Notes under the pieces: generated by a model
The model's input: the letters and a program-made list of their open reading frames with translations, nothing else
What the model was told of the DNA's origin: nothing
Database searches by the model: none
Source: Pipra filicauda
Lineage: Eukaryota > Chordata > Aves > Passeriformes > Pipridae
Assembly (NCBI RefSeq): GCF_003945595.2
Contig: NW_024104428.1
Span: forward strand, 1,140,106-1,204,105
Direction of reading: 5' to 3'
DNA length: 64,000 bases
Translations under genes and position numbers: made by a program
In this document: one piece after another, positions 17,820-51,297 of the stretch
Numbering within the stretch: position 1 is the first letter of the stretch
Layout of the letters: each line of letters begins with the position of its first letter

Positions 17820-18028
17820 TTAAGGTCTTTCTTTCGGGTGGTTCGGAGTCCGGGGCTGAGTGCGGGGCCGGGGCCGCGGGGGCTGTGGCTGCTGCTGCCC
17901 CTGGGGCTGCGGCAGCGGCCGCTGCTGCACCCGCACCTGCTTCGGGGTGGGAGCGTAGGGCGTCGGGGGCAGCTCCCGCGTCGCCCTGTCACACTCCGCC
18001 GGCAGGGTCTGCATCATCCGCTGCTCAT
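17820..18028 (-). CDS. CD2: CD2 exon 5 (proline-rich cytoplasmic tail)
   Basis: Acceptor GTCGTTGCAG precedes ATGAGCAG; the frame runs 68 codons to TAA at 17822-17820. It is very rich in Pro, Gln and Arg: PPTPYAPTPK, RPLPQPQ and PPRPRPRTQPR. The PRPRPR run fits the PxPxPR type of motif bound by CD2AP/CIN85-class SH3 domains and resembles human PPLPRPR. The PPPPGHR motifs bound by the CD2BP2 GYF domain in mammals are absent. The local GC and CpG richness reflects proline and arginine codons. Confidence 0.9.
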
Positions 18029-21000
18029 CTGCAACGACAGAAGGACCCCGCGCTCAGGCACACGCTAAGAAGTCAAACAGCCAGGGAAATGTCCTTGGCG
18101 CCAAGCAGGAAAAGGCCAAGTGTCGATCCTAACCTGCTGCTCTCAAAGGTTTTCCTGCTACCCCAGTGAACAAGGAAAACCACCTCTCCCTGCACATCCC
18201 GGGACAACGTGGAAGCTTTTTTTTAATCTGCCTGGCTGAGATCAAGGTACCTGGAGCATTTGGGGCAGCTCTGCCCTGTCCATTGCGGGAATCAGCTTTG
18301 TCAGGGAGGCCCCAGTGGTCATCGATAGCCTGAGCTGCTCTGTCCTCTTTTGGAGGCTACTGAAGGGAAAGTGAGATGTAACACCAGGAAGCTACATCAA
18401 AGCACTCTGCCCTGCCATTATCCATGCTGGGATTTCCAGACACCTGGAAGCCAGAGATCCCTTTTCCCAGCATCAATTTTCTCACATACAGAAGAAGTAA
18501 ATTCATGCCAGCTGACTTCTGATCACTGACTGATCATTCTGAAATGTCACTCGGCTTAATTTAGGGACTGAGGGATTTACCTCTTGGGACGCTGAGTTGG
18601 CCTTAAGCACACACCAAACTGTTTCAAAGAGGCTGGTCACCCTCTTACAATAGTTCTCATTTTTCTAGATGTGTTTCAAAGAGGCTAGTCACCCTCTTAC
18701 ATTAGTTCTCATTTTCCCAGACTCGTTTTCTTAATTCTTGCTGAATCCAGACCCAAGAATTGAGGATATGGTGTCACTGCACAACTGAAGAAGTAATCTA
18801 TACCACTCAAATGGGAACAGCTATAATGTAAAATAACACTCAGATGGCTCAGCTCACACCAGCATTGCACTCACAAGGTATAGCAAAACTTCTGAGGCAA
18901 CATCCCGTGCTTGCAATGTTGTGAGCTCTCTCAGAAAATAGGAAAGCACTTGCCTGTTCTTCACAGTCATAGCTTTAGGGAAAGCAGGAGAGCCATGGAA
19001 AGTTGCCTGTGCTCAGGTGTGGTGAGGTTGCTCTTACCTCAGCCATGGGACTGATCATGCTCACCCTTGTTGTCAGCCTGACCATTGGCATCTTTGAGGT
19101 ACAGCTGAGGTTTCCTTCAGGCATTGCCCTCTTTATCTTGACAAAGGCTGCTGTGGTGTACAGAGCAGCTTCTACCCCCATTTTATAACTCAAGAACTGA
19201 CTGACACAGAGACTAGCTTTTTTTTGAGACCACACAGGAAGCCTCACACAGTGTGTGAGGGAAGAACTCAGAAAAAAGGCTTTAAACAGCCTCTGCCAGG
19301 GCAACCTCCCTCCTGCTGTAGCCTCCAGGTAGGCCAGATGACTCTTCCTGAGCAGGAGCCCAGTGTCCTCTGCCCACCCAAACCAGCAGTAATGCCCAGG
19401 CTGTGTGTAATTCAAAGCAACCTGTCTGTCAAGTCTGAGAGCCCACTCTCAGAGAGGACTCTGGCAGAGTATTTCCTGTGATCTGAAAGAAGCATGAATT
19501 TTGGACAACAGATGAGACCTCTGCACACTCTGAAAACTTCAACACTTTAAAAGTGCCCCAAGTTGGACCTCCAGTGTTGACAGGCCTCCAAGGACATTGT
19601 TTGCAGAGGGGACAAACTGCTGTGAGATGCCTGAGGAAACACATAGAAAAGCTGAGCCCGTCTTGCCCCTGCTCACTATCTAGACTACTTCTGCATGTTA
19701 CTAATGTTGTTAAGGATCTGAATTTTATAACACATAAATTGAATGAAAAAAAAATCTGCTGACAGACTATCTAAGTGTATATTTTAGCCCCATGGATGCT
19801 CCTGACTGGTGACCTTGGCCAAGTTTTAGAGGAGCAATTCTTCCCCCACAAATAAACAAAAGGGCTTGAGAACAAGAAGTCCTTTGTTCAAGGCATTTAT
19901 CAGAAAGTGAGACTGGCAATGCCAGCTGATCTGCTCAGATTCACCATATGCTAAAATCAGGTTATTGCTCATGACAAGGCAGAGAGCACACTCCTGACCA
20001 CAGGAAAGTTCAGCGGGAAGCTCTAAGATTTTAGGTGTCTGGGTAGCAACATAAAGCCCCTTAAACACTTACCATCACCTTCACGCCTTTTTGCTTTCCT
20101 CCTCCTGATACAATAAATAAGCCAAATCACAAAGATGACAAAAACGAGTGCACCGCCCGCTATGCTTAAGATGAGATAAAGGTCCAGCTTGCCTAGTTAA
20201 GAGGATGAAAGAGGATGTTAGATAGAAGGAAATAACTTGCACAACATCTACTTAGAATTCTGTATTTTCTTCCATTGACTGTAAAGGCAGAGTATGCCTT
20301 TTCTGGAGAATTTTGATTGCTCCATAATGGATTCGAGTTCTGCAGAAAATTGAAACCAGAGCATTCATGTGTGCCAGCTCATCTTATTTTAATTACCACA
20401 AATGCCTGGTTCTTGCTAGCAATGGACCCATTTACGGACAATGAGCATCCAGGCAGTACTCAACATCTAACAAAAATAAACTTCTTAAGTACTTTCTACT
20501 GAGCTGGAAACACTGAGACTAGCTTGCTTTCACAGTATTTTGGTACTTCCTCTTCAATTTTTGGCTGTACACAAATTAAAAAAAAAAAAAAAAACAGTAA
20601 AAAGGAAAAGAACATAACCAAATACATCACAGCCTCAAAACGAGAGTTTGGTTTGCCTGTATGCAAAAATTTATATGAGTCTTCCCGTTCCTTCACCACA
20701 GAAGGTTTGCTGGATGCTGGCCTTCCTTCACCACCTCCTGCTCGGGCTGTCCTCCTGGCATTCAGTGGTAACACTGGAGCACAGGTGCCATGGAGCTGAA
20801 CCCAGCAGAAGTGCACCTTCCTTGGCTTATTAGGGCACAAAGCTCCAAAGGGGGCACCACCACTGGTACCACCCTTATCATTCAGTGGGCGTGCACATGG
20901 AGAGCAAAGAGCAAGGACACAAATCTGAGATGTCTGCACTATAAAGATCACCATCAGCCTGGGCTGCCCCAGTGGAGAAAAAAAAAGGATGAGTACCCTC

Positions 21001-24000
21001 AGGGATGTGGTTATTCTCACCTGTTTTAGCTGCAAAAGACACCGAGGTGTATTTTGCCCTTTCTGTGCCTGTTTCTCCCAGCTGACTGTAAGAGGAGCCC
21101 AGGCAGATTCACATATTTTCATACACTTTTCATACACTTTTCATACACTTGTATGAAAAGTTAGCTGAGCTGAAACCCACCTGAAGCATGCCTTGCTTGC
21201 TAGAAGTCAAAATTCAGGGTGATTGGCTTTAATTGCAGGGCCGAGTGTTCAAAGAGGATAGCAGGGTTGGAAAGAGGTTCGACTGCAAGGTGAGGGATTT
21301 TTAATCCACTATGGATCTGGCAGACTCCTGCCACCACACAGAAAGGTTTGAGGGGTTTTTAGTTTGAGGAGGGAGGGTAGTGCTAACTGGGTTTAGAGTT
21401 TTTTTGGTGTCTGAGAAATGCCATATTTGTACCTTAAAGATCAGTGTGGCAAACCTTTCATTTCCCTGTTAATAATGTGAGAAAAAACAAACTCTCCCAC
21501 CCAACTCACCTTGTGAAAGAAGAGCATTTTTCAAGGGTGAGAAGGAGTGAAATCTATGTTATCTAGCTGATGGCTAACATCTGCCTATACCAGCAGTACA
21601 GGTGGGCCTGTTCTTGCCTGGCTTGTTCCCTGGCATAGCCAGCTTCTGCCAGCATTTCCTCATTAAGACAAGGTGTTTGGGATAGTTTGCCCTGCTGTAA
21701 ACAGCCCTAATCCAGCAGCACACACTCATACCTCTCATCCCTTCCCAATGCTAGCACTGTGCAGTCCATCAGGTCAGGCAGCTCATGCAGCAGCAAAAAA
21801 CCCACCTTGTTCAGCTATATTAGACATCAGGAGGGTTTCTCAGGAGGCAAGGGCATCACCAGGGAGCAGAGACCACCCTGTCCCTCAGCTCTGTGCCCTT
21901 CAGTCAACCTCAGCAGTAAAACCTATATACCTTAGGGCTTGTTCCCTCCCTCCTCACACCATGGGCTGACCTTCAGATTTGGACTTTCCCTAGATTCACT
22001 GTGGCAGAAATAGATGGATATTGGAAATACTGAGCCAGCTCTCTCAAGCCTGCCCCCCACCCCCCTCCACTAGCTCCAGCGGGAACCTGGAGCCAGGGAA
22101 TGCTTCAAGCAAAGCCCTTGAGATTGGGTGGGATGAACCCAAGCCCAGCAAATTCAAGGACTTTTCCCCAGTTATGCACTGGAATTCTGAACTTTGAACG
22201 GAACACCACATCCGGTGTCATACCAGTATAATCTGTCCTTTGTTTCTGCCTTAACTTTCAGAACTTTTACTGGGGGGAGGAGATGAATCACACAATGACT
22301 TCTTTTGCCTATTTAATAATTTTTCAGCATGACCCTGACCATTTAAAATGCAATCCCTTCAGTCCTTTTGCTGCACCTGTGATTTAGAAAGATGATACTT
22401 CAACTGAGTAAGAAAAACCATAGAAAGATCACACTTCACCTGAGTGAGAGAAACCAGGGTACACTTGAGCCATCCTCACCTGAGCCATGCAACCCCAAAG
22501 CTTAGCTACATTCTCCATAACTTCTCTCCTGATTTCTAGGCCAAGCTGGAGAGTTCAAGCAGCTTATTTTTCCCCTTGTGAGAACGCCCTTCCACATCCA
22601 CATGTGGCAGGCAACCGCCACCTTCATAGATATGATTACGCAGAGGAGAAAACACACAGGTGATTTCTCAGTTATGAGGATGTAAATCAAAAGCAAATCC
22701 TCTGAAATCAATGTTGTGGCTCCATATACACACGAGAAGATCCCAGGCCATATTTTCCAAAAATAAACTGTTAATTTATGTTGTGGTAGTTTGTGTAGTT
22801 TTATACTATATTACTGAAGACAACTCTTTGGCTCTGAACCACTTGACTGAAGTCAACCTTTGGGAAGCACCATTAGTTTTAAAGGAATAAAGGAGGATAA
22901 AAACTAAGAGGAAAGTGCTTTCTGCCTTTTGCAGACTGCTGTATGTCATTAACACACTTTCAGGCCCACTTCCCTGCTTTCTTCTTTACTTCATCGGTCT
23001 ACCACTAGTGGTGGTCAACACCACTCAAGTCTATCAGGAAGCTGACACCAAAAAGTCTGTTAGGGTACTTCTGGCAGCTTTTGGCAGAAGAGTCAGCAGT
23101 GATGGAGGGGAGGGAGAAAATGATGGGATAACCAAGGATCTCTCTCTGATTCGTTCACCCTGAGACAGCCTGATCTGTCTGGGAGGCTGAAGTTTCCCTC
23201 AGAAGACTTCACCTTGAGTGGGAGCAGCACTGCAGTGCGTCCTGGAGACCTCATTACCACCCACAAGGCTCTTGATTCCAGAAAAACCTGTCCCACTCTT
23301 CCTGCAACCCCCAGACCTCACTCACATCCCGGCTGCCACAGCAGCATCAGCTCCCAGTAACTGTGCCAACATTAGGCTCCCAGTACCGAGTACCCAGGAC
23401 CATCAGTGCTCCTGGCACCTGGACCAGTCCTATGTGTCTGTGCAACTGCATCAGGCTGTGTGGGTCCTCCCTAGCAGATTCTGACAAAAGAAAGCTCTTA
23501 CCTGAGCACTTAATTGCTTTTTCAACCATTTTTTCACTGACTTGGTTCTTAACAGCACATCTGAATGTCCCAGAATGCCGTGTCTGCAATTCCAACATGG
23601 CTGCATTCTTTTGGATTTTTCTGCCATTAGGTTGAGTCAGTTCTATAGTAAATTCTTCACCTTTAGCCTTGTGGTCCACTTCACACTTGACAGATACAGT
23701 TTTATTCAGGCATTCAGTGCTGAGGATTGGCTGAGGGACAGGCTCTGAAAAAGAAGGGAAGGGACAGGCACATCTGAGATGGTTTCTCCTTTTGAAAACC
23801 TCCATTATTAAGCAGAACAGAGAATTAACCCCAAATAACCAGATAATGAGAATGAACCTGCTAACAGAAGAATGAAGAGCAAATTAGGCCTCTACTGCAG
23901 AAGTAGCATGACCATAATAAAGAAAGTGCAGTGCAGTAGCCTACATATTTGGCCCAGCAAAGCAGAGCTGCACCACTGTGGCTGGGCTGCTTTCAGTCTC

Positions 24001-27000
24001 AGCCTGGCTCACAGCCAGCCAGGCAGGTGAAGGGAGGAAGCTGGGATTCCAGGGAGGCAGTGGATGGCAGGTGCTCAGAGCCACAGCCCCCTCCAACTCC
24101 AGCCCCCGTGTCTTGGTGAAAATGAAGTTGGCCCTGCTCTGCCTGTGCCCATCGGGAGAGATTCTCTCTAAAGCAGGAAAAACAACTGCTTATGATGCTC
24201 TGTGTACTACCAACAGCACTCAGCCAGCTCAATAGCCACAGCATGAAAGCCCATCAAACCAAAATGGAAAACACAAAACAGACACCTCAGCTCTCAGTGA
24301 GGTTGTGACAGAGAAAACTGATTTCTGTCTTTTCTTATGCCCTGCAAACAGCCAGTTACATTTTGGTTCCAGTTTCTCTATCACTGGTGGCATTGAAAGA
24401 GCCAGAAAAACCTGTGGGATTTTTCTCGACTAGGGAAAACTGGCAGGGACAGCAGATGGAAAAAAAAATATTTCACAGAATATTCTGAGTCAGAAGAGAC
24501 CCACAAGGATCATCAAGTCCAACTCATAAGTGAATTGCCCCTACAGGGATCACACCCACAACCTTGGCATTGTTAGCACTGTGCTCTCATCAACTGAGCT
24601 AATCTCAGAGTCCACCTGTTAGACCAAGTAAATAAAAACCTGCCAGGGTCACCTTTAGTTACAGGCAGTGTAAGTTATGGAGATCATAAATTTTAAAGCC
24701 AGTGAGGGCCGTTCATGGCACATGCAGTTTGGGTTCACACATGACATCTGCAGCCACGCTTTCCCTGTTAAGTCCACTCCTCTTCTGCAAACTGTAACCA
24801 GTTATTCAGCGTGAAACACTAGAGTCCAGGTGCTGGTGATGGAGTTGTGTTAGGATATCATTGAAACTGTTTTGTTTTTTTTTTAACAACTGTTTGCCCA
24901 GCCCTAGTAACAAGGGGGTAAACCTCACTGACAAATTACTCCAGCGCCCAAGAGTTACTACAGGACTTTACTTCCAAAAATGCGTGTCAGAGGTAAGGCA
25001 ACCTCTCTGCACAGTACTGCTGCATAGTAGAGGAAATGATGCAGCACACAAGTGGGTTGGAACATTAACCTTAACCTGAAACAAGGACACCCCAATGACA
25101 GTTCAGTGGCTTAAAACATGAGCAAACAGCATCAGGCCCTGATGACTTTCTGAATCTGTTTGCAATAACAGTTCTCAAAGTAATGAGACACCCTCACTGC
25201 TCAGCAGCCCCTTAGACACAGGGCTTCCCATTGCACAGAAACCCTGCTAAAACCATTCCAGATGTCCTTGCTGCCTCATCAGGGCATCATTTCTGTAGTG
25301 CCAGCTGGTGCCCAGGAACTTGAGAGGCTGGCAAAGGTGCACATGCTGGCTGAAGAAGGACAGAGCAAAACTATCTTCTTTTGGGGGAAAAAATACCTGC
25401 TGTCCTACAGCTTAGAGGCCTGGAGAGGTGGTAGCAGCCATAAAGGAGCAGAATAACCATCCCCCATCTTCCCTGCTCATCTGAAAAACTTTGGGCTGCT
25501 ACTGCTCTGATCCCTAAGGACAAGATTCAGCAAAGGCTGCCTTCGTGCTTTGAGCCTATGCAGCTGAAATCCCCAGGTGTGTGCTTAATTGTGCTTTGAA
25601 CAGCATCCTGCTTCCAGAAACCTCTTGTGGGAACCCAGCAGCCTACGTGAGGTTTCTGGAAGCAGGATGCTGCCGGGAGCCCAGCCCCCCTCACAGGGTG
25701 CTACCCCAGGCCAGGGTCCCAGCACCACTGGTGGTGCTGCAGTAGGGCCGACCACACCCACCCTGCTCCCCACACAAATCTGCTCACAGCTGCTTTCTTG
25801 GGCACTTGCAGAAATCTGGTGGCTGACAAGCAGGGGAGCCAGAAAGAAGGCAGGGGTCTCAGGCTGTCTATAAGAGCAGGAGAAGGGAGAAGAGAGGCAG
25901 ACAGCTGTCAGTGGCGGGAGGAAGAAGGTATGTCTTACAGAAGTCCCCCTGCCCCCATATCAGAAAGGAGGGCAATGAGTAGGAAAGGCTGCAGGAGAGA
26001 AGAAAAAAAAAAAGGACCAAATCTTATTCAGCTATGCTGGGAATGGTATAGGAAGAGCAAAAACTCACCCTGAACAAAGAAGCTTGTCTTTTCTTCTGCC
26101 TTCCATTTTCCATCCCGCTCATAAACAGTCACTGTGTAATTTCCACTGTCCCCTTTCACCACCTGACGTATTTGCAGAGTCCCATTTTGGAGTATCTTAC
26201 ACCTGCACTGGTCCTTGTTCACAAAGTACTTAACATCATTATCTTTGAGCTGAACCAGCCTCTGTCCATCTCTCTTCCATATGGCATGGTATATGCTCCC
26301 AGGAGCAGTGATGTTGAGAAGAGCCGTCTCATTCACTGCCTTGTAAAGCCGGTTGATGACAGAGCCTGTGAAGGGAAGCACAACCAGCCCATCAGTGGTC
26401 TCCAACAGCCCTCGCTGCCATGCTCAGCAGCCACAGCAGTCACCCAAAAGGTTGTCATTTGCTCCTCCCCAGGTTGCCTGAGCCTCTTTGCATTACCGTT
26501 GCCATCTTCTTCCCCTGCTCCAAAGCACCTCTTGGTTGTTCGCTAGATAAATGTCAGCATCCAGTTTGATTCTGAGAGGCAAGAAAGCTAGGAGTCCAGC
26601 TTTCAAAAGCTGACTTTTTATACCCTGGCTGGCTGACTTGGAGTGACTCTGGATGCCAAGATTCATGGCTGCCTATGTATTTAACCCTGAACTTAACCCT
26701 TCCTGAAAATAAGGTCGCTTTGGTGTGTTTTGCACATGGCACATGCTGGTACCTAGAGCACCCACCACTGCAAACATTGCTGCAGGCAGCAAGAACACAG
26801 ACCAGCAGTGTCCCTGGACGTAGGATCTGTTCAGCAACAGCAGTGATAACAATAATTATAACAACAGTGGCCTGTGTCAAGCAGTAGTGAGTGTAAGGCA
26901 CTGAACGGAAGGCAGACCCACTGCAGTGCCCCCTCCTCAACCATCCCAGGCACCCTTCCCCACTGGAATGTATCCACTTGATTTTCCTAGCACTCGACCC

Positions 27001-29231
27001 TGGTGGGGCAAGTAAGGCAGGCAGAAACAAGCAGCCACTCACATCCTGTGAACTGACGGGGTGCTGGAAACATTACGAGATAAGCAAAGGTGAAAAAAAC
27101 CCTTTTCTCTTTACAGGTCTCCTTTGTTGACAGCTGCCTTCTCCAGAGCAGCTCAGAGTAGGAGCTTCCCAAAGGACTGGGAAACACTTGAGCATGGGGC
27201 TGCCAAAGGGGATATTCAGGAAAGCCAAGGATGCTAAAAGTCTACACCAGAGGGGACGACAGGCCCTTCGGGCCATGCCCAGGCGTCCTGCCCGCTCCCC
27301 TCCAGGCTGCTTCACACACGGCCCTTGCAGGACCCACCCCACACTTTCAGAGTGCAAAATTTGTTGGGAGGTCATTTCAAGTACTGTCCCCACCCCCGAG
27401 GCAGGTGGAAAATCTGCAGGAGGAGGTAGAAACCTGCGTGCAAGTGTCAGGTGGGATAAGCTCACCGGCAACAGACCGTGCGCTCAAGGCCACGGATTAT
27501 TTCATTTCTCATTTTCTGATGCTCATTCCCCCTCAATTTACGGGATGAAACCAATCAGCAGGAAGAGCTGATTCTGCTCTAATTTTATATACTTTAAGCA
27601 CTTTTTCCCCACAGAGAGAAAAACTATGCTTTTGCGTATTTTTTATTACAGTGCTTTATTCCTGGTATCTAGGATAATGACAAACTGACCCACAGAGGGG
27701 AAACTGAAATCCAGTGGCTATTTCATTAAACTAACAATATTAGATATAATCAAAGAACTAAAATGCTGTGCCTCTGCAACAAGAACATTAATGCTGTAGT
27801 GCTTCTGGGCACATTCACCTAAATTCAGTCTAAAGAGAGGCTGTTCTTTCTGCATTGCCTTTCTTACAAAGTATTTGACATATCTAATGAAATATCCTGA
27901 AATCAAGCTATCAACTAAACAGCCTTGGAAACAGCTATGACCCACATAGGCAACACTACAGATTATACCCAAATATTTGAATTCTGACATTTGTTTCTGC
28001 TCAGTCATGAACAACTATTTAGAGCTAGTAACAGGGTTTCTTTGCACAACAGAAACTACTTATATTTTCTCTCTGAAAGTAAAGGAAAAAAGTAATCTGG
28101 GTTTTCAAAGATAATTCAATGGCACCTCTGTGAACAGACCACCGAGACACAACTATCTGATCCCTATAGTTTTGCTAGTGGAAAGCTGAGTATCCCACAC
28201 ATATACTAAAAATCTGTTTAGCTAGTGAAACATTTCTGTTAAAAAAATGCCAACTGAAATGTGCTCCAAGGAGCAGAAAGATCTGAACTGAGAGCCCAGA
28301 GCTCACTCACAATCACAAGAAAGAGTTAGAAGTTCCCATAGTAGCTTTAGAGAAGGAAGTAAGTCTTTGAAACAAGTTTTCCATTCAAGGGAATAGTCAT
28401 CATTTCTGCTGGGGAACGTTTCATAGATCATGTACATTAAAAAAAAAAATCCTTATTTATCTATTAATTTTGTTCTGAAGGAAAAGCAAAGCATTAAACA
28501 GCCATACATACAATCTGCATTGGAATGAAACAGAGAAAAAAAAAGTTATGCATGCTTGTGTTGTCTCCATCTCTTATAACCTTCTCTAATCTATGAGTTA
28601 ACACCCTAATTAAGTTTTTAGATTAATATTTTAAAAAATAATGAGAACAATAATGTGCAAAATATATAAAAGATACATTTATTTGCTTGCTGTTTTCACA
28701 TTTTAGACCTCAACTCCACTGAAGACACTGAAATACATCACTCTGTTAATATTTATGGAAGAATATAAATTACGCTTTCAAAAGATTTGCGCATCTTCGA
28801 TAAGAAAAGGAAATTACATGCGATAATGCACAGCGAACAGAGGATCTCTAATGTAGTACAAGCTACCTTGAGGGCAGAAGGAAAACTGCATGCTGACATT
28901 TCTCATTATACATGTGTCAAATTAAGGCTCATTAACTTAAAACCAAAACTCTTTACAGCTTATTATTATAACTGGAATATGAAACTCAGGTCCTGCCCTC
29001 CCCCCGGCTGAAAATTAAATCAAATAATAATAGCAATAACTCAGATGTCTTCACTCACTGGAAAAGTGGAACTAGTGTCTTATCAGTAACAGCTCACCAA
29101 GTTGTAAATGGCTTAAAATGCAATTTTAACGTTAGCCCAAAAGAGAAAAAAAAGGGTAAGAAAAACTCACATTTTACACTGGAAAATAAAAGCAGCAAGC
29201 ACTTGACTAGGAAAATCCTCCCAAAGTTCAT
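17820..29231 (-). CDS. CD2: CD2 T-cell surface antigen, complete 5-exon gene
   Basis: Coding exons are 29231-29171, 26365-26069, 23744-23502, 20192-20073 and 18028-17820. They join with GT/AG sites, all in phase 1, to give 309 residues (mammalian CD2 is about 350). Order: signal peptide 1-20, V-like Ig domain 21-119 lacking the usual inter-sheet disulfide, C2-like domain 120-200 with four cysteines (131, 140, 182, 199), TM about 206-229, basic stop RRRK, proline-rich tail to 309. The V domain has the family NGTL motif and an SGNY F strand; the TM exon starts LDLYLI, like mammalian LDIYLI. CD2 is a T/NK-cell adhesion and costimulatory receptor whose V domain binds CD58 (CD48 in rodents) and whose tail recruits SH3 adaptors. 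Sequons lie at 32, 38, 81, 96 and 133. Odd points are a short tail and two extra V-domain cysteines (74, 76). Identity is secure from domain order, motifs and gene structure. Confidence 0.95.
18619..18721. repeat. Two-copy tandem duplication, 52-bp unit
   Basis: The block beginning 'gtttcaaagaggctggtcac' at 18621 recurs at 18673 with only a few changes (ggctggtc/ggctagtc, caatag/cattag). It lies in CD2 intron 4. Confidence 0.9.
19165..19265 (+). repeat. MIR-like ancient SINE relic (intron of CD2)
   Basis: 'ccccattttataactcaag', then a shortened 'gacacagagactag' and 'gaccacacagg', follows the order of the MIR/CORE-SINE core (ccccattttacag...cacagag...tcacacag). Short and diverged. Confidence 0.4.
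20073..20192 (-). CDS. CD2: CD2 exon 4 (transmembrane segment)
   Basis: Acceptor CTTAACTAG; donor GATG|GTAAGT; 120 nt, phase 1 to 1. It encodes KLDLYLILSI, then a glycine-bearing hydrophobic span through YCI, followed by RRRKAKRR as the stop-transfer. The LDLYLI...AGG pattern parallels human CD2 LDIYLI...CGGG, the most direct single piece of homology in this exon. Confidence 0.95.
21112..21162. repeat. 12-bp tandem repeat with hairpin arm
   Basis: Three copies of a 'ttttcatacact'-type unit, directly followed by 'tgtatgaaaag', the inverse of the unit, so the block can fold back. It lies in CD2 intron 3. Confidence 0.8.
23502..23744 (-). CDS. CD2: CD2 exon 3 (membrane-proximal C2-like Ig domain)
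   Basis: Acceptor CTTTTTCAG precedes AGCCTG; the donor is CTCAG|GTAAGA; 243 nt, phase 1 to 1. It encodes residues 121-200 plus split codons. It begins PVPQPIL, like the human 'VSKPKI' junction. It has the four-cysteine arrangement of CD2-family D2 domains (TEC, VKC, FRC, IKC), expected to make two disulfides. An NKT sequon is at 133. Confidence 0.95.
24471..24610 (-). mobile_element. CR1 LINE 3' fragment (CD2 intron 2)
   Basis: 'cacagaatattctgagtcag', 'agagacccacaaggatcatc' and 'caactgagctaatctcag' are the reverse complement of a common CR1 3' end. Truncated, no coding part. Confidence 0.85.
26069..26365 (-). CDS. CD2: CD2 exon 2 (ligand-binding V-like Ig domain)
   Basis: Acceptor TTCACAG precedes GCTCTG; the donor is CAGG|GTGAGT; the length is 297 nt, phase 1 to phase 1. 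It encodes residues 22-119. The B strand reads ALLNI, the C strand IYHAIWKRDG, the E strand NGTLQI and the F strand GDSGNYTVTV, where the position usually held by cysteine is not Cys, as in CD2-family D1 domains. The NGT sequon at residue 81 sits where human CD2 carries its well-known N-glycan. Two cysteines in 'QCRC' (74 and 76) fall between C'' and E and are unusual. Confidence 0.95.
29171..29231 (-). CDS. CD2: CD2 exon 1 (signal peptide)
   Basis: ATG is at 29231-29229. It opens a 20-codon leader starting MNFGRIFLVK with a leucine core and ending SSVK, followed by T and the donor GTGAGT (phase 1). The 61-nt length and phase match the first coding exon of the CD58-like neighbour. The T joins GC of exon 2 to make Cys21, near the predicted cleavage site. 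The exon was chosen because it is the only leader with a matching phase-1 donor that I found upstream of the V exon. Transcript data would settle the start. Confidence 0.85.
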
Positions 29232-37487: not shown

Positions 37488-37508
37488 CCCCCCCCCCCCC
37501 CGCCCCCC
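37488..37508. repeat. Poly(C) tract
   Basis: About 20 bases of almost pure C, in the intergenic stretch between CD2 and the CD58-like gene. Confidence 0.85.
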
Positions 37509-41400: not shown

Positions 41401-42294
41401 AGCACAGCACCAAACAAGCCTACATGCACAGGCAGATGGCCAGCTTCAGCTTGCAGTAGCTAAACCATTACACTGAAGGCACTAATGCTTGCACTGATAA
41501 ACAATCTCAGCACTATAATCAATGTTTCTGCCAAAGTTGTACACCCAGGCCCCAGGCACCCTCCTGCTTCAGGAGGCCAGCTGGTGACGGTGCTGGTTTA
41601 GCTCACAGGTAATCCAAGCAGGACCCTGGTGAAAGGGCACCAAAAGGGGAGCAAAGCCAGTTATCACCCTACAGCCCCCACCACTGTCCTGGTCCCAGGC
41701 AGCAAGCAGTGAGGGCCAGATCACGGAGGGTGTGGAGCTCAGATAAACACCCTGCACACAGATCCCTGGCTGAAACCTCCACTGAGTTTCTTCTGCAGGG
41801 CCTGTGAAAAAATGCCTTGAAATCTCCTAAGAGGAGATTTTTTTTTTCTTTCTCAGGAAATTTCTGGCAGGTCCTTAGTTTATGTCTGGGACTGGCAGGC
41901 CACCACAATCCCCCTGTCATGCCTGTCCTTGGCTGGCAAAGACATGGCAAAGACATTGGGTGGGCAGGGAGCAGGAGGAACTGCCCAGCTTGTTTCAAGC
42001 TGTCACCTGGGGCTCCACAGTTTAGCTGCAGCACTGTTATCAGGCAAAGCATCAAGGAGCTGCCCAGTTTTGTTTGTTAGTGAACCTGTCAGCTCGTGGC
42101 AGTGCGGCCTTGAAGCCACGGGTGTGCTTTTCCTTATATTTTCTTTTTTTCTTTTTAAATGAGGTTAGAAGGTCTGACACCTCATGTCTTTTCCCTGCTA
42201 AAATTTGCCAGACCGATTCTTACACACAAATGAGACTATGGGATGCAAAGGACAAGTGTCACAGGCTTCAGGGTGGAACAGCAAGCATGTCAGG

Positions 42295-42455
42295 TCAGTC
42301 ATCAGTTGGATCCGGGAAACAGTCCGAGGCATCTTCCTGGCTTTCCGCATCAACTATGACCTCAGGGTCTGGCAGTTCCTCAGCTTCTATCTGCACTGCT
42401 AAGTTTTCTTCTGCCAGTGGCTGGGGCTCAACGCCTTGACCAGTCTGGGCAGCAT
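42295..42455 (-). CDS. CD58: CD58-like exon 6 (acidic C-terminus and stop)
   Basis: Acceptor CTTTTTCCAG precedes ATGCTG; 52 codons then TGA at 42297-42295. The product is strongly acidic (EELPDPEV, SQEDASDC, DPTDD) with no aromatic signalling residues. No canonical AATAAA follows closely; the nearest one I found on this strand is at 39922-39917, about 2.4 kb on, so the 3' end is unclear. Confidence 0.85.
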
Positions 42456-45400
42456 CTGGAAAAAGGAGAAATGGTTTATATTATTGCCCACGCCATGGCT
42501 CGCTGTCCTGGAACTGTTCATTTATTGAGCTGTCCATCGTGTCTCCAGACTCTTGGGCACTGAAGACCTCTGGCCTCTTAGTACTGAAGTACTTTAGTAC
42601 TTCTAGTACCAAACCCTTAGTACCAAAAAAGCCAAATCTATTCACTTACATCTGAATAATTAAAGGTGGCTAACAGCACACATTTAATATATTCTCACCT
42701 ACTTTCCACATGCACCTCCACTTTTTACTTCATTGTAAAAAATTTAAATATGGGCTACTTTTTTAGTCAAACTGACAATGTGTTAATTTTTTATTAAAAG
42801 ATCTACACTTGAAGTATATTAATATTAAACAGTGACCTGAAAGGCTTTTTTTTTTCTTTCTTTCTTGCTCTGTGTTCATGAGTAGCTTTTAATATTTTGA
42901 AAGCAGAGTAAAGCAGCATCCAAGGTTAGACATAAAGCACAGCTGAGCTGCTGGAGGCTGTGCACGGTACAGTGAAGGACATCAGAAGTGGAGACAGCAG
43001 TGCTGAGACCAGGCTATGACCTATGTAATATTGCTCCAGTTCACGATGTCTCTGCTAAACCTACTTCAGCTCATGACGGTGCATTAGTAGGGAAGGTGTT
43101 GCATTTTTGTTTGTGAAACAAAATCGTGGGAAACATAATGCAAAAAGTGGGAGTATTAATATCAAGCACTTCCAGAACAGGAGATTTCTGAAGGGTTTTT
43201 ATCGCTGCGCTCTCTTGACCATATTGTGCTAAAGCTGTAGGGGGTTTATGCTCGGTTTCTTTGAAGAATTAAAAATATTCCCACTTTAGTCTCAGTTTAA
43301 GGAAATACACAAGCCTCTGGCTCTGATGGGATTTAGCTGTGTTTATAGCTCAGCATTTTTGGTTCATGCTGTCTTGAAGATGAGTGCTTACAAAAACAAT
43401 GCTGATTTTTATAAAATGTTACTGATGAGAAGGGGAGAGGGGCGATAAAATTGCAGGAAAACTGCTAAGTTTCGAGGGGTTGCTGTTTTTGAGATATGTG
43501 TTTTAGCACAGGTGATCCTGGAATAGATAGCTACTGGCAGTCCCCTCTATGGGGTGCTTATGGGATGGCTGCTGGTACATCTCAGAGCTGAGTGGGGGTG
43601 AGAGTTACCCCTGTGCAGGAGCTGAGCGAGAGTAAGGTGCTGATAAATGACTTGCTGCGGCTTCTGTCATCTGGGCAAGATGCAGCACCTTCCTTGCGCC
43701 CCAGACTCCTCTCTACAGTCACCTCCACCCCCACCACCCACAAACATACACTGTGTCCTTCATCCTCCTAAACAGGGTATCTGCCCCACTTCAGAAAAGT
43801 CGCTGGACGCACCAGGCTTTGGAGGGCGGTCAGCTTGGGCAGCTTGAGCCTCGACGTGGTCTCCATTGGGGGGGCTCTTCACACCTTCACTGGACACCAC
43901 TGACATGGTTAGTCCGTCATCCTTCTCCTCCTCTGTAAAGCCAAAACTGCAGACTTGAAGGAAAGAGGCCCCCCACAGCCCTCCAGCCTCAGCATGTCCC
44001 TTGCAATGCCAGACCACCAACACCTTTGTGCCTCCTCCTCATGCAGCACTGGCTCCCTTCCCAGAGCAGACAGATGCCAAGGACAGAGGGACATTGCCAA
44101 CCTGTCACAGACCAGCTTGGCCATGCTGGCAGCTTCACAGCTTGAGGTGGCCTCACAGGGCATGGGCAGATTGCACTCAGGGACTGGTGCTGACAGAGGA
44201 CTGCCATCAGAAACCTTCGGGTCATTCCAGGATCAGACCGGAATGAGGCTCAGTTTTCTTGCCCATAGAAAAGGTTTTGCTGTGGGTTTTGTCTGGCCAG
44301 GAGCACATGGCGGCAAGTGTGAGGTGAATAAAGGGAAAGGAAGGTTTGATTCAAGATCTCCCTGGCCATAACAGTTGCCTATCAGCAAGCAGATTACTGC
44401 TCCTCCAGGTCGAGGGAGGACGGGCTGGAGGACAAGCAGCCACCCAGCAGAGAGCAGTTTATTCTGAGGCTGTGTCAACCCCAGCCTGCATAAACACAGT
44501 CCTCTCTGAGACTCATCCCAGGGGGTCACAGCAATCTCCACTCACCTGAGGGTACAGGGATGAACTTGTGTTTCCTCTTCACGCAGCAACATATGACTGA
44601 GGGCACAACCACCAGCAGGATAAGCACACCCACTGCACACCCTGCCAGGATGTAAATGAACCATGGGTACTGCAGCAGGTCTCCTGCAAGAAGGACATGG
44701 CATTGTTAGGCACCAGAGTGGACAAGTTTCTTTCTTCCAGGGGGAGAAACCCTGCAGTTGGACTAAAGCATGTGGGCAGCACTGTTGCTCTGGGTTGGAT
44801 CAGGGAAGCTGGTACAGTGAACTGTGGCAGAGCATGAGTTACATCACAGTGTTTAAGTATGGTGTGGAACTTTTCATTAGGAGAACAGGCCCGTGTGACT
44901 ACGCTGTGTGCCTTATTTCTGCCTGCTCTGATCAGCAACATCTGAGATAATTTCTAAGTTTTAATCAAGGTTAAGAGGGAAGGTGGTGGTTTAAAAGACA
45001 GTACATTTCAACAAGTGTTATGGAAACAAGCAGCTGAGAAGAGGAGGGAAACCTGGGGAGTCATCTCCTGCCGAAGGAAAAGATGCAGTCTACCCTCAGA
45101 GCTTGTATTAGGCCCAGAGAATCCGCTCAGGACAGCCATGAAAGGACTGCTCCAACCTCAGAGCAGGTCTGAGCAGAGCCTGCACTCCTCAGGCACCAAA
45201 GGCTGCAGCCACCAGAGCCAGGGCTGTAGGAAACCGACTCCACTGCTGCTCGGAGAAGGATTTCTCTCTGTTCCGCTGCCCAGCCGAGATGATGCAAAGC
45301 CGCCAGCAGGAGGCGAAGGCTGCAGATGGCTGAGCAGAAGGCCACGCACAAGTCAGTGGTAATTATTACCCAGCTCAGCGTCGATTGCTCAGGGTTGCTT

Positions 45401-48400
45401 TGACGGGTCAGACCTGCACGTTCGCTGCTGCTGAGCAGGGGAGCTGGTAGGGGGCATCACACAGTTGCAGGAAAGAGAAACTCATCCAGACTTGCTCCTT
45501 CACCGAGACAATTTGCTCCAACCGGGGGCAGCCAGGAGGAAAACTCTCCTTCTCATATGAAAAAACCCCATGCAATTCCACTATTGCTGCAATATAAATT
45601 CCTTAAAACTCCTTAGGTAAGCCTATGCCATCCTTTTCTGAATCATTTAACTTGTTTTCAGCTGCACACATGCCTGCACAGCACAGCACTGCAGCAACCA
45701 ACAGGATCATTTGGAGCTTATTTTCAAGCCCTCCAAAGCACAAATTGCTCCATATCTCCAGAGGCTGGGAAGGATTTCAAATGTTCCAAGTCATACTACA
45801 TGCTGTCATAGTCAACACAACTCACCAGGACAGTAAAAACAACAGTGTGTGCTCCTGTGTGTGAAACCACATGTACTCATGGTATTTTCAAAGTCCTTTT
45901 TCCAGTCTCTTTTGCCAAGTTAAAAAAAAAACATACTCAAGAGAAATCTTTAAGCAAATCAGAAATAATTTCCATAATAATTTTATTTCCTTTTTGATAA
46001 AAGCTTAGAGAACATTATCAAAAGTATGAATATTAGTTGGATTTTTTCCTGAATTTTTTTTCCTAAAAATTTGCCATTCGTTGAAAAGGTCTTTTTGAGA
46101 TAAAATATTGTGTTAAAAATAAGCAATAAACAAGTAATGAATCAATAAATGTCTTTTATATATGTTGACTTGTTAAGTTCTGAACCCTCTTCTTTAGATC
46201 TCGAGTGTTCAGAGCCCTTTAATGCCTGGAAAGTTCACAGCATTTCTGCCAAACTGTTTTATAGTAACAATTATTCAAAATCAATCATCAGTCAACAGGT
46301 TGCCCAAATAAGTGTTTTTACATAGATCTTCCACCTACAGTGGAAAAGCTAAATTCAGCCCTTGGCCTGGAGGAAATAATAACCCACAAAAATAATTACT
46401 TAGTCATTAATTAATTTACGTGAACTCATTTCTCCATTCTTTTTACTAGCATTTAGAATTGCTTTAGTTCACGTTTTACAAATGTGGTTGCATTTGGTGA
46501 CTAAAGTAGAATCACTGCTGCTTTCTTTCTCTCAGAGCCTTCCAAATACACGTTCATGAGCACGTCCATCCCAACAGAGCCACCACTGAGTTCCCCTGGG
46601 GGCTCTTCAAGAGGAAATGGGGAACTGATATCGCACCCAGGGGGCTGGGCAGCCACCCAGAACCAACGATGGCGACTGTCAGCACTCACATGGTTTGTCA
46701 CAGGGCTTGACTGAACAGCTCACGGGCATTCACATCCTTGTTCCCCAGTGCCGCGGCCAACTCAGGTCCGGCTGCGCCGAGCGGCCTCCGGCCAATTTCA
46801 CCGGACAAAACCGGGATCGCTGCTCCACAACCACAAACGCCAAACCTGCACAGACTGGCCAGCGGTGCCAGTGTGACCAGGCACAAACAGCCCATGGCGT
46901 TTCTGCTGGATGCCAGCATGCTGGATATGGGGTTTGGGCCAGTAAGTTTGCTTTCACACCAACTGTGTGCCAACCACAGAAGAAAAGACAGTATCTGCTG
47001 CAATGCTGGAGTGTCTCTGACAATTTCTAAAATGCTGGGTGCTATTAGAGAGTGCAATTTCTCTAGCAGCAGGTAATTAAATTAATTACGGCTAAATTAG
47101 TCAAAAACCTTGTGGTTAAATTATGCATGTAGCTCTGATGTAACTCTTGATAACCATCTTTGCTGCCACAGAGCAGAATAACCTTCTCTACTGCAGGTGC
47201 AAATGAAATTATACCCAAGGATCCAGATTTTCTGTCTCATTAAACTATGGCCCCACTCGAGCATTTATGAATAGTTTGCAAATGGATAAAGTCCCAGCCT
47301 TCTCGCAGTGCTACATATCTGAGCAGGGACATTCCATAAGTAAAAATGACTTGTGTCTTTACCCACTTCTGATGGTGTGGGGCTGATGGAGAAACATTTG
47401 CACAGACTCACAAATCGTTGTGTTTCTGACCTAGATAGGCAAAACACCTTAGCTGAGTCCAGGAGCAACAGGGCTGAACTAGCAGAGGTGTTTTTATAAG
47501 GATGCATAGAAACTGGAAGGCCATCAGGGTCATGGATGAATGTCGGAGTAGAAAGCAGCATGTGTTTCTAAACTGGCACTGAGAATCAGTGCACAGAAGG
47601 GTGCAAGGTCTCTATCACTGGGAAGCAGGAAAACAGACAGAGAGAGATTCATCCTTGCTGCAGAGCTGGGTAAAAGGACCTCCTGAAAAAACTTTCATCC
47701 CATCAGTGATTTTAGGCTGTGTCAGTCCAAGACACAGGAGGGAGAAGGAAGTCAAGAGGTCGCTTTCTGAAGGCAGGATGTGCTAAGTCTGGAAGGCAGC
47801 TGCCAGGGGACAGAAGAGTTCAGCATTTTGAGGACACTGACAACTCCTCAGTTTGCTGCTGGAAGAGACCAAGAGGCAGATTTTCTGGTTACTCACCGTA
47901 GCTACAAGACAGTGCAACAGGCCTGGTCCTCGTGACGCTGCTCCCGTGGGACACCACGCACACAAATTCCCCGGGCACGGTTTTGTCCAGGCGGACCTTC
48001 CTCCCACCGTCCGTAACACAAGCCCCGGGGGCGCTCAGCTCTTTGCCGCTCAGCTGCCACCGGAAGGTCATGCTCTCGGTGCTGGTCGCGTTGCAGGACA
48101 ACTCTGCAGTCCCATTAGGGAAGCACTGGATCCCAATGGTCGGCTCTGGTCACACACAGCATGGGACAATGTGAGCGGGGAGGAAAGAGAGAGGTGAGGC
48201 GCGGACTCAGCAGCGAACACGAGCTGAACAGGAGCTTCTCTTACCAGCAGTCTCAGTGCCACTGCATTTACTGTAGCCAGGAAGCACAAAAGTAGGTAAC
48301 CAGACCCTTCAGTGCCTGCACTCAACCCTGAAATGCTTAACAGTGCCCTCTCCCTAACCCTGCTAGGGACTCTTTGGTCCCTATTTTGGGGATGCGACAA

Positions 48401-51297
48401 AAATCTGGCATCTCTTCATTTTCCTTACTGACACTGAAAAAACCTCCAAAAATAAAAGCCCCTGATCTGAGAGAATTGTGGAACTATCCAGAGAATTTGC
48501 CAGCCAGAGGCTTTCTCTGAAATCAGCAGATAACCATAGCTTCAGAGCACACTCAGCCCTTTCCTCCACCAGAGGTTTGTACTTTTGCTATCACTCTGCC
48601 TCTTCTTCCATTGTAGAGAGGAACTAGTGCAAATCATGCCCAACATGGGAACCAACACCAGATAACTGCGGTGAGAAAGGATACCCAGACTATGACTTCT
48701 TAAAATGAAGCAATGCACCATTGCTCTTACTACATTTCCCTGAATTTCTCTCTTTCAGTCTACTACAAGGAGCAAACCTGTTTCCTACATTTGTCACTTT
48801 GCAAATACAAATTAGACAGAGAAGTGGTGTGGTTTTTTGACAGCAGGAGTAAAATTAGAGAACATCCATCTGTGCAAATAAGCTCAGAAATCACTTTCTT
48901 CAACTGGGACATCATCTTCAGTTAAAACTCATGCCTCCAGGAACACCTTTGCTGTGAAATTGTTTCCCTGCCTTAGGTGTGCCAACAGAACACAAGGAGG
49001 AAACAAAAGCCCCAAAAGCAAATCCACTGAAATGGAGGTTAAACCCAGGACTTCTGTAGTCTTTGCCTACTTCCAGTCTAAGCTCCTGATCTTCATGCCA
49101 AGAAGTCACATCTTTGACCTGCTCTCCACCGCGGTTCTGCCTGTTTGCACCCAAAAGGGGGGAGCGTTCATTTGTCTTCACTGAGATCAGTTTGCTCAGA
49201 CATTTTCATTACAGTTTCATACGCTTCAATTTGTCTTGGAAGCTTGTGTAAGTGAAAGCCCTGCAAAAGAACCGGTGGAGATGAGGACCGGAGCCATGGT
49301 CGCTGGCTGCCTGGACCATCATTCAGCAGGGGGACAAACCCATTTAAGCCTTCTCCTTATTACCCCAAGCAATGAGCTGGATCCTGTACAGAAGTGACTT
49401 TTTTTCTGTCTTCACAACCTGCAAGTGGATGAGCAGGCACAAAAGGGAGCAGGAATTCTGAGGCCACAAGGAGAACAGTGGGGAGGCTGGCATGGGTGAG
49501 GGCTCTGGACAGACCCAGAAGATGCTGACCTCCAAGCTGCTCAGGGGTAGCTAAGAATCACTCATAGATGCCTTTAGCATTTTTCCTCAGCTGCATGAAG
49601 CAGGGGGAAACCCCAGCACACCTCAACCCAGACCTGCACAGAAGTCCAGTCCCACTTTCAGAGCCAAGTCAGGCAGGGTTAACTCCTTAGGGAAGCGTGT
49701 CCACAGGCAGCAAAATGCTGTTGGTCAGTGGGAGCTTTTGTGGGAGCCATCAGGAATAGCGCTCTGGAAACAGACTGAAATCTCCAGCTACATGTCTACG
49801 TAGCATAAGCTCAACTTTACAAACACTTCACACTGCTGCCTCTTACATCATGGAAAATAGCCCAGAACTCAACTGACTGGCTACTTCAAGGAAGGATCAA
49901 CAGACAGGAGAGACAAAGAGGATGCAAAGAGCACGTCTTAGTTTACACTGACTATTACTGCTCTCTGAGTGTGCCAGAAGCTTTAAAAAAAGCTTCTTCC
50001 GGAGGCATCTATAGCTCCTGCAGGCTCAAGCAATTCCTTAGGAGGAATTTCAGGGCACCAAGCTTCCAACCAGGCTCACAAGTTCAAAAGCTATTTGTTG
50101 CTAAGAAGGCCACTTACCAAATACTTCCAGTGCAAAATAACTGGTGGCGTTGGGAAAAACAAATTCGTATTTTCCTTCGTCCTCTTTCTCCACACTCTTC
50201 AGCTCTAGGGAGCCATTCAGCCAGTTCAGGCACCTACTGGCAGAATTGCCGCACTTGGCCAACAAAGCATCATTTAAGACAGTTGTCGAGCACACCCCGT
50301 CCCCCTTGCTCATTCTGGAGAGGGTCTGCAGGCTTTGGTTTCCCACAGAAAAGACTGCTGAGCCGCCGCTGAGCACACTGATCTGGGTGGCAGAGCCTGA
50401 AAGGAGAGGCACAGAGCGTGGGCAGCAAGCTTGCCATGTCCATCCATCCCCTCTCAGCTGCCTCCCAAAAAGGCAAATGCCCAGGTGAGACGTAAGAGGC
50501 ACAGACCCAACCCTAGTGACAGGTTGGATCACCAGTGATTGAAAATCAGAGGAGTGGGAAGCCTTCTGTAAGGGTCAGCTTCCCCCCACCTGAATAACAC
50601 AGGAATGGTGTGCACAAAAAGGGAAACAAAAGGCTGAACAGCTGATCCTTTCTCTCCCCAGATTTAACATGACTATCTACCACCCCCCATCAGAGATGAG
50701 AGACTGTGCAAAGAAAGATCCTCAAGGCATCAATGCCATGGATCCTGTACAGAGGGTAGCAGAAACAACAGCTGCCTGCACAGCTGCTTCTCCCCGAAGA
50801 GTAAGGTCACAGCTTTAGCTGGAACAAGTCTCACAGTCCCCTGACACATTATTAAGTTGCTGTCTGCAACTTAAAATTCAAAAGATGGCAGGGCAAGAGC
50901 AGCTCAGGGACTAACCCAAGGTCACACCAAGAATTAGGAGCAGGACCACATTGCTCTCCAGCCAGCCCTGTGTTGTACAAGGACTTTACACTCTCCGCTG
51001 AAATGCTCTCACGGATGCAGTACACCCGGAAAGTACAATTCTGTTCGTTATCATTCGTTTACCAAAAAAATAATCTGTCTTACTTTGGTCTGACTGCCCC
51101 GTTCATGCATTAGCGGTTACACTGTTTGATGTCTCCCCAAACCTGGTGGAGTCCTTAAAAGATCTTGGAGCAAAATTAAGGCATCTGCTTGTCTAGACAA
51201 ATCCGTGCCAACTCCACAAAGAGAAATCCCACTTACCATGAGTAACAGTTATTATCACCAGCAAGCACTGCAGAGTCAAAGGAGAGCCGAAATCCAT
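42295..51297 (-). CDS. CD58: CD58-like receptor of the CD2/SLAM family, complete 6-exon gene
   Basis: Coding exons are 51297-51237, 50396-50118, 48145-47897, 44683-44546, 43932-43813 and 42455-42295. All junctions are phase 1 with GT/AG sites, giving 335 residues. Order: signal 1-20, V-like domain 21-113 without the canonical disulfide, C2-like domain 114-196, TM about 204-231, tail 232-335. The V-domain end has NGSLEL, then EDEGKYEF, then PNAT, then FALEV; human CD58 shows the same order (GSLTI, DEDEYE, PNIT, FFLYV). CD58 is the adhesion ligand of CD2, and the CD2 gene lies 13 kb downstream on the same strand. Sequons are at 40, 81, 103, 124 and 132. The tail of about 100 residues is acidic and has no tyrosine, so no ITSM, unlike signalling SLAM receptors and much longer than the short human CD58 tail. 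Membership of the CD2 family is firm; the name CD58 is probable, and CD48-like or another SLAM relative is the alternative. Confidence 0.88.
43813..43932 (-). CDS. CD58: CD58-like exon 5 (cytoplasmic, acidic)
   Basis: Acceptor GGCTTTACAG; donor CCTG|GTGCGT; 120 nt, phase 1 to 1. It encodes EEEKDDGLTMSVVSSEGVKS and then a proline/alanine-rich part ending DRPPKP. It has no tyrosine and no known signalling motif; serines are frequent. The exact match of length and phase to both neighbours supports it as real. Confidence 0.85.
44546..44683 (-). CDS. CD58: CD58-like exon 4 (transmembrane segment)
   Basis: Acceptor CCTTCTTGCAG; donor CTCAG|GTGAGT; 138 nt. It encodes DLLQYPWFIYILAG, a valine/leucine-rich span, then CCCVKRKHK. 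The three cysteines at the cytoplasmic membrane edge (228-230) are candidates for palmitoylation. A TM exon, rather than a GPI signal, shows the product is a type I membrane protein. Confidence 0.92.
47897..48145 (-). CDS. CD58: CD58-like exon 3 (C2-like Ig domain)
   Basis: Acceptor GTGTGACCAG; donor TACG|GTGAGT; 249 nt. It encodes residues 115-196, starting PTIGIQCFPNGT with LSCNAT, C-strand FRWQL, F-strand GEFVCVVS and ending ALSCSY. Cysteines at 121, 131, 176 and 194 make the two-disulfide pattern of CD2-family D2; Cys156 is extra. Sequons are at 124 and 132. Confidence 0.92.
50118..50396 (-). CDS. CD58: CD58-like exon 2 (V-like Ig domain)
   Basis: Acceptor CTCCTTTCAG; donor TTTG|GTAAGT; 279 nt. 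It encodes residues 22-113. The A'/B region is ISVLSGGSAVFSV, the E strand NGSLELKSV, the F strand EDEGKYEFVF and the G strand YFALEVF. The F strand has Phe where a V domain normally has Cys, matching CD2/CD58/CD48 D1 domains. Three other cysteines (56, 69, 76) lie between C' and E. The sequon at 81 aligns with the CD2 sequon at 81. Confidence 0.9.
50895..50985 (+). repeat. MIR-like SINE relic (intron 1 of the CD58-like gene)
   Basis: 'ctaacccaaggtcacacca' followed by 'aggagcaggaccacattgct' resembles the MIR segment with 'cttgcccaaggtcacacag' and 'gcagagccaggattcgaac'. Diverged and short. Confidence 0.5.
51237..51297 (-). CDS. CD58: CD58-like exon 1 (signal peptide)
   Basis: ATG at 51297-51295 begins MDFGSPLTLQCLLVIITVTH, ending CATG|GTAAGT in phase 1. 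The 61-nt length and phase equal those of CD2 exon 1, and both leaders start M-x-F-G (MDFG, MNFG). The hydrophobic core is short but adequate for secretion. Confidence 0.88.

What the first reader, a model, noticed from the sequence alone, without database searches (positions are those of the whole stretch)
17820..51297. CD2 and a probable CD58 ligand gene in direct tandem with matching exon architecture
The sequence shows two complete CD2-family genes on the same strand, 13 kb apart, with all introns in phase 1, identical 61-nt first coding exons, leaders starting MNFG and MDFG, and sequons at residue 81 in both V domains. In human, CD58 and CD2 lie near each other at 1p13 with IGSF3 between them and opposite orientations. 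A direct head-to-tail receptor-ligand pair supports origin by local duplication and may preserve an ancestral layout.
Basis: partly seen in the sequence, partly recalled or inferred. Interest (0 to 1): 0.75.

Follow-up and report, generated by a model that had tools for sequence, protein, structure and literature searches.

The report
Bird CD2 gene beside Bu-1 gene
In this bird the T-cell adhesion gene CD2 lies just downstream of the gene for Bu-1 (chB6), the classic bird B-cell marker; the pairing is already known in chicken, and it makes CD2 a good but untested candidate for Bu-1's missing partner.

Summary
Two complete two-Ig-domain genes lie head to tail on the minus strand, 13 kb apart: CD2 (17820-29231) and gene B (42295-51297); all 9 internal joins are phase 1, both first coding exons are 61 nt, both proteins have a sequon at residue 81. 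Gene B is the ortholog of chicken Bu-1/chB6: 64% identical over full length, with the published CCC (228-230) and PxxP (279-282) motifs in place. chB6 beside CD2 on chicken chromosome 1, within the CD2/SLAM family, is already published. Orthologs in crocodilians, turtles, tuatara and geckos, and a green-turtle gene model running from chB6 into CD2, make gene and order old. CD58 orthology is undecided. V hairpin length and C2 cysteine spacing match CD58, and the CD58/CD2 chimera 1ccz is fold hit 2 and 1; but trees do not resolve it, C2 shows no CD58 profile signal, and predicted bird CD58 proteins are mentioned elsewhere. Best mechanism: B-cell and macrophage glycoprotein that may be a CD2 counter-receptor (about 0.4; untested).

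The parts
51237..51297 (-). gene B (chB6/Bu-1) exon 1: leader, 61 nt, MDFG start
50118..50396 (-). gene B exon 2: V-type Ig domain, sequon at residue 81
47897..48145 (-). gene B exon 3: C2-type Ig domain
44546..44683 (-). gene B exon 4: transmembrane segment and CCC (228-230)
43813..43932 (-). gene B exon 5: acidic tail with PPKP at 279-282; skipped in 3 of 81 database proteins checked
42295..42455 (-). gene B exon 6: end of acidic tail and stop
29171..29231 (-). gene A (CD2) exon 1: leader, 61 nt, MNFG start
26069..26365 (-). gene A exon 2: V-type Ig domain, sequon at residue 81
23502..23744 (-). gene A exon 3: C2-type Ig domain
20073..20192 (-). gene A exon 4: transmembrane segment
17820..18028 (-). 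gene A exon 5: proline-rich tail (PPRPRPR) and stop

Best explanation
The window holds the bird chB6(Bu-1)-CD2 tandem: chB6 upstream, CD2 downstream, same strand, an old sauropsid arrangement. Shown here: CD2 is a type I protein with V, C2 and a proline-rich tail; chB6 is a type I protein with V, C2, CCC and an acidic PxxP tail. Taken from papers on chicken: chB6 is on B cells, a macrophage subset and some intraepithelial cells, lies near the B-cell receptor, and its cross-linking activates integrins or triggers apoptosis. Inferred: CD2 on T or NK cells binds the chB6 V domain on B cells and macrophages as mammalian CD2 binds CD58, and the chB6 tail signals back through SH3 proteins. The confidence below is for identity, arrangement and age; the CD2-chB6 binding step I put at about 0.4.
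For: Gene models and coordinates. Gene A: CD2 as best solved relatives. Gene B: 88 relatives; chicken 'B6.1 precursor' 64% identical over the full length; CCC 228-230 and PxxP 279-282 as published for chB6. Chicken chB6 lies within 20 kb of CD2 and adjacent to it. Orthologs in tuatara and geckos. Green-turtle gene model P0083 joins chB6 exons to CD2 exons. Expression on B cells, macrophages and intraepithelial cells. For the binding step: linkage, C2 cysteine placement of the CD2/CD58 kind, and the CD58/CD2 chimera 1ccz as Foldseek rank 2 and 1 of 350,542 chains.
Against: No binding data. The PxxP is not at its place in tuatara and in 5 of 5 gecko rows. V net charge is below zero in only 7 of 12 chB6 rows, so opposite charge to CD2 is not general. 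The turtle order rests on one predicted protein. In the family-profile comparison chB6 scores highest with the SLAM set. A homotypic role is raised by Funk and chB6 is reported as a disulfide-linked dimer.
Confidence: 0.9

Rival explanations
1. Gene B (chB6/Bu-1) is the one-to-one sauropsid ortholog of mammalian CD58, with a signalling tail that mammals shortened, and it is the CD2 ligand.
For: V F-G length 17-18 in 12 of 12 chB6 rows and 17-19 in 9 of 9 CD58 rows, against 23 in 4 of 4 CD2 and 21-23 in 6 of 6 SLAM/CD48 rows; 9 and 10 residues between the first two C2 cysteines, against 6 or 8 and 5; C2 tryptophan kept by chB6 and CD58, absent in 4 of 4 CD2 rows. chB6 against CD58 alignments: 190 columns, E 4.3e-7, probability 92.7. 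1ccz as Foldseek rank 2 and 1. chB6+CD58 not rejected by AU tests, p 0.46, 0.38, 0.20. Neighbourhood of CD2.
Against: C2 profile match to CD58 scores 10.9, no better than column shuffles (mean 10.4, max 13.8), while CD2 scores 26.5; V+C2 scores are SLAM 73.0, CD2 58.9, CD58 54.7. Of 5 CD58 rows compared singly, 3 score in or below the SLAM range. C2 tree joins chB6 to CD2 at 84/81; V tree joins CD58 to CD48 at 90/80. The chB6 profile scores CD48 V above CD58 V against PDB. Predicted bird CD58 proteins of other lengths are mentioned in PMC5990624.
Confidence: 0.35
2. chB6 is its own old CD2-family lineage, sister to CD2 or to the whole CD2/CD58 group and missing from mammals; its partner may be itself or another family member.
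For: chB6 rows form one clade at 100/100 on a long stem (1.92) with open placement; C2 tree chB6+CD2 84/81; residue-81 sequon column shared with CD2; bird CD2 is the best single-sequence hit of the chB6 ectodomain profile; disulfide-linked dimer reported.
Against: The two length characters shared with CD58 only.
Confidence: 0.5
3. Gene B belongs with the SLAM/CD48 branch.
For: Highest profile score with the SLAM set; best CD2-family hit in PDB for the chB6 profile is CD48 V, 25.4 bits; chB6+SLAM not rejected, p-AU 0.44; NTB-A chains at ranks 3, 4 and 8 for the gecko model.
Against: First C2 cysteine at index 7-11 of the domain in chB6, CD58 and CD2 rows but at 19 in 6 of 6 SLAM/CD48 rows, with 5 residues to the next; linked to CD2, not to a SLAM cluster (the SLAM locus is recalled).
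Confidence: 0.1
4. The two genes arose by a recent local duplication in birds.
For: Same strand, same exon phases, 61-nt first exons, similar leaders (alignment z 5.6).
Against: Nine blastn hits of only 15-40 columns between the gene regions; V and C2 of A against B give z 4.2 and 4.8 only; orthologs of B in geckos, tuatara, crocodilians and turtles.
Confidence: 0.02

Closest known systems
chicken chB6 (Bu-1) next to CD2 on chromosome 1 (PMC4031500, PMC11882424)
   Same: Gene B is its ortholog: same length, CCC and PxxP positions, 64% identity; CD2 adjacent.
   Different: Another bird; PPKP instead of PPMP; no G3+ quadruplex motif in intron 2, where chicken has one.
mammalian CD58 (LFA-3)
   Same: V+C2 type I layout, short V F-G hairpin, 9-10 residues between the first two C2 cysteines, linkage to CD2.
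   Different: No tree support; C2 has no profile signal; chB6 has a tail of about 100 residues, an acidic PxxP motif and a glycosylation sequon in the CD2 column.
mammalian and turtle CD2
   Same: Gene A: CD2 by sequence, exon number and proline-rich tail.
   Different: Tail has PPRPRPR where mammals have PPLPRPR, and no PPPGHR repeats (mammalian motifs recalled, PPLPRPR also).
SLAM family and CD48
   Same: V+C2 type; highest overall profile score with chB6.
   Different: Late first C2 cysteine with 5 residues to the next.

Membership tests
CD2 (gene A) | closest known relatives are CD2 | tested here: met
   rat and human CD2 first, E 3.4e-10 and 1.1e-9
CD2 (gene A) | five coding exons; V without canonical disulfide; C2 with four cysteines; proline-rich tail | tested here: met
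   exon number
CD2 (gene A) | binds CD58/CD48-type ligand on other cells | not testable with these tools
   needs protein
chB6/Bu-1 (gene B) | full-length similarity to chicken chB6 | tested here: met
   64% over 100%
chB6/Bu-1 (gene B) | CCC at 228-230 and PxxP at 279-282 | tested here: met
chB6/Bu-1 (gene B) | next to CD2 | tested here: met
   chicken
chB6/Bu-1 (gene B) | B-cell expression | not testable with these tools
   no expression data for this bird
CD58 (gene B) | groups with mammalian CD58 in a tree | tested here: inconclusive
   not found, not rejected
CD58 (gene B) | CD58-type C2 domain by profile | tested here: not met
   score 10.9 against shuffle mean 10.4, max 13.8
CD58 (gene B) | short V F-G hairpin and 9-10 residues between the first two C2 cysteines | tested here: met
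   characters chosen after seeing the alignment
CD58 (gene B) | position beside ATP1A1/IGSF3 | tested here: inconclusive
CD58 (gene B) | binds CD2 | not testable with these tools
   needs protein
SLAM/CD48 (gene B) | late first C2 cysteine with five residues to the next | tested here: not met

The most novel reading that the evidence does not exclude
Bu-1/chB6, the old bird B-cell marker described as having no clear mammalian counterpart, is the sauropsid CD58: the CD2 counter-receptor, kept head to tail with its receptor since before birds and turtles parted, and carrying a death-signalling tail that mammalian CD58 lost.
Probability: 0.3. Interest if true: 0.8.

Novelty: already known. Interest (0 to 1): 0.45.

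Why it matters
The pair is published for chicken, so the tandem itself is not new. [quoted passage not shown] If the linked CD2 is that partner, an everyday reagent of bird immunology becomes a CD2 ligand, and a simple staining test decides it. The turtle gene model and the tuatara and gecko orthologs also give a layout against which the mammalian CD58-IGSF3-CD2 order (recalled) can be judged rearranged or original.

Tried and rejected
Exon phase as kinship evidence: rejected, since phase-1 joins are general in Ig-domain genes (recalled). Recent duplication: rejected. A third CD2-family gene or ATP1A1 in the window: none by tblastn, best other hit E 0.019. A pattern scan for Ig F strands found gene B's V exon and three unlikely frames, but it missed gene A's exons and gene B's C2, so it is a weak negative. 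RNA families: 0 matches at gathering score. tRNA genes: 0. Single-sequence PDB search with gene B: 34 rows, no CD58, CD2 or CD48 row. Human CD58 as protein query: 16 rows, those with names all mammals. A bird CD58 distinct from chB6 did not turn up; those searches need shared five-letter words, so absence is weak. VIA-align shows 50 rows without a CD2-family chain, which excludes nothing. V-domain charge: 4 of 4 CD2 rows above zero, 9 of 9 CD58 rows below, chB6 mixed. Papers: 10 searches in an open-access library; chB6 with CD58 and Bu-1 with CD58 gave 0 papers each; CD58, chicken and CD2 gave 56, of which 20 were listed and passages of 2 read.

Rows dropped: the two turtle V2 rows were left out of the V+C2 and C2 trees and of the profiles, and the Emydura V-only row out of the V+C2 and C2 sets. 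The two length characters were picked after seeing the alignment. The SLAM set is six human paralogs and the CD2 set four rows, so the profile scores compare sets of unlike breadth.
Full report
What is there. Splicing the minus strand by GT-AG sites gives two intact genes whose ends are exactly those of the finding. Gene A, 17820-29231, has five coding exons and 309 residues; gene B, 42295-51297, has six and 335. B is upstream of A on the same strand; B's stop and A's start are 13.06 kb apart. All nine internal joins are phase 1, both first coding exons are 61 nt, and both proteins have a sequon at residue 81. The closest public protein to B is from a tyrant flycatcher, Empidonax traillii, 95% identical, so the window is probably from a suboscine passerine (inference).

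Gene A is CD2. Its best solved relatives are rat and human CD2 (E 3.4e-10 and 1.1e-9), it has the five exons given for CD2 (PMC5990624, passages), its V domain lacks the canonical disulfide, and its tail is proline-rich with PPRPRPR where mammals have PPLPRPR. Chicken CD2 is listed as down-regulated in birds infected with chicken anaemia virus, next to CD8A and other T-cell genes (PMC4526643, passages).

Gene B is Bu-1/chB6. A protein search gave 88 relatives; those with names are from birds, crocodilians and turtles, many called uncharacterized. The chicken one is named B6.1 precursor and is 64% identical over the full length. The chB6 papers place cysteines at 228-230 and an SH3-type PPMP at 279-282; gene B has CCC at 228-230 and PPKP at 279-282, and the chicken row has PPMP in that place. 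The same papers already put chB6 in the CD2/SLAM family and next to CD2, within 20 kb, on chicken chromosome 1 (PMC4031500, passages; PMC11882424, parts 1-3 of 4). So the tandem is known in chicken. [quoted passage not shown]

How old. A profile search added orthologs from tuatara and geckos, alignable through the tail. In 50 aligned orthologs the residue-81 position is a sequon in 43 (42 NGS, 1 NDS). A green-turtle gene model, P0083, starts with chB6 leader, C2, membrane and tail parts and goes on into CD2 V, C2 and tail; a predictor can do that only if chB6 lies upstream of CD2 on the same strand. The order is therefore probably as old as the split of birds and turtles (inference from one predicted protein). 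Between the two gene regions blastn found nine hits of 15-40 columns, the best 25 bp. A recent duplication is out.

Is B CD58? For: two length characters, picked after seeing the alignment, are shared by chB6 and CD58 only. The stretch from the V F-strand tyrosine to the domain end is 17-18 residues in 12 of 12 chB6 rows and 17-19 in 9 of 9 CD58 rows, against 23 in 4 of 4 CD2 and 21-23 in 6 of 6 SLAM/CD48 rows. The residues between the first two C2 cysteines number 9 in 11 of 11 chB6, 10 in 9 of 9 CD58, 6 or 8 in 4 CD2 and 5 in 6 SLAM/CD48 rows. The chB6 alignment matches a CD58 alignment over 190 columns at E 4.3e-7. Models of a flycatcher and a gecko ortholog have 1ccz as Foldseek rank 2 and rank 1 of 350,542 chains, though CEACAM chains score almost as well. 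By its alignment 1ccz carries a CD58 V domain on CD2-type C2 sequence, so it holds no CD58 C2.

Against. In maximum-likelihood trees chB6 is a clean clade (100/100) but its place is open: the V+C2 tree sets it beside CD2 at 48/54; chB6+CD58 has p-AU 0.46 and chB6+SLAM 0.44. The C2 tree joins it to CD2 at 84/81 (chB6+CD58 p 0.20), and the V tree joins CD58 to CD48 at 90/80 (chB6+CD58 p 0.38). With family profiles, C2 against CD58 scores 10.9, no better than eight column shuffles (mean 10.4, max 13.8), against 26.5 for CD2 and 17.7 for SLAM; V scores are SLAM 54.7, CD58 41.6, CD2 35.7; V+C2 scores are SLAM 73.0, CD2 58.9, CD58 54.7. Single sequences give bird CD2 60.6, two CD58 rows 58.4 and 49.1, three CD58 rows 30.9-38.3, and six SLAM/CD48 rows 27.1-39.4. 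The chB6 profile against PDB puts general Ig chains first, then CD48 V at 25.4 bits and CD58 at 17.4 and 14.6. The residue-81 sequon column is shared with CD2, not CD58. PMC5990624 (passages) mentions predicted CD58 of ostrich, zebra finch and great tit, 121, 112 and 56 residues longer than human; if counted on whole length, as its zebrafish figure suggests, these would be 371, 362 and 306 residues and not the chB6 proteins seen here (ostrich 336). Birds may thus hold another CD58; none turned up. Outcome: C2 cysteine placement is of the CD2/CD58 kind and unlike SLAM/CD48, while CD58 itself is unproven.

Mechanism. The best-supported reading is a two-sided adhesion and signalling pair coded side by side: CD2 on T or NK cells, chB6 on B cells, a macrophage subset and some intraepithelial cells. 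Linked receptor and ligand genes are a habit of the CD2 family (CD2 with CD58, CD244 with CD48; recalled). The chB6 tail is reported to need its SH3 motif for cell death, to bind caspase 8 in pull-downs, and cross-linking to activate integrin-dependent binding, so contact with CD2 could tune or kill the B cell. Binding is inference at about 0.4. Homotypic binding, raised by Funk, is the main alternative.

Limits. Ten requests to the window's own genome did not complete, so IGSF3 and ATP1A1 could not be placed. No expression or binding data exist here.

Noticed in passing
window 41000-58000, both strands: Chicken BU-1 has a G-quadruplex motif 3.5 kb downstream of its start in intron 2 and another 3 kb upstream, used in REV1/DT40 work (PMC4282387, passages). 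No four-run G3+ motif with loops up to 12 lies in this stretch here, so neither is conserved in this bird.
   Followed up: partly
window 43813-43932 (exon 5 of gene B): Three of 81 database relatives checked (P0060 stork, P0061 pigeon, P0066 zebra finch) go from exon 4 straight to exon 6, dropping the 40 residues that carry the PxxP motif reported as needed for cell death. All joins are phase 1, so the skip keeps the frame.
   Followed up: partly
database proteins P0072, P0073, P0075, P0076, P0079-P0083, P0105 (turtles): Several hidden-necked turtle models (P0073, P0075, P0076, P0079) have a different V domain with a long F-G hairpin on the chB6 C2, membrane and tail; others skip the chB6 V (P0080, P0081, P0083) or have an odd one (P0072), while side-necked P0082 and P0105 keep it. 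A V-domain swap or a neighbouring gene merged by prediction.
   Followed up: partly
window 27086-27110 and 51642-51666, minus strand: A 25-bp stretch, 24 of 25 identical and T-rich, lies in CD2 intron 1 and about 350 bp upstream of the chB6 start codon.
   Followed up: no
window about 8016-8972, 38189-38545 and 61222-61515, minus strand: Open frames that read like ends of avian CR1 LINE copies (likeness recalled, not searched).
   Followed up: no
[quoted passage not shown] here 5 of 5 gecko rows keep CCC after the membrane segment and tuatara has CCY, while the PxxP is not at its place.
   Followed up: partly
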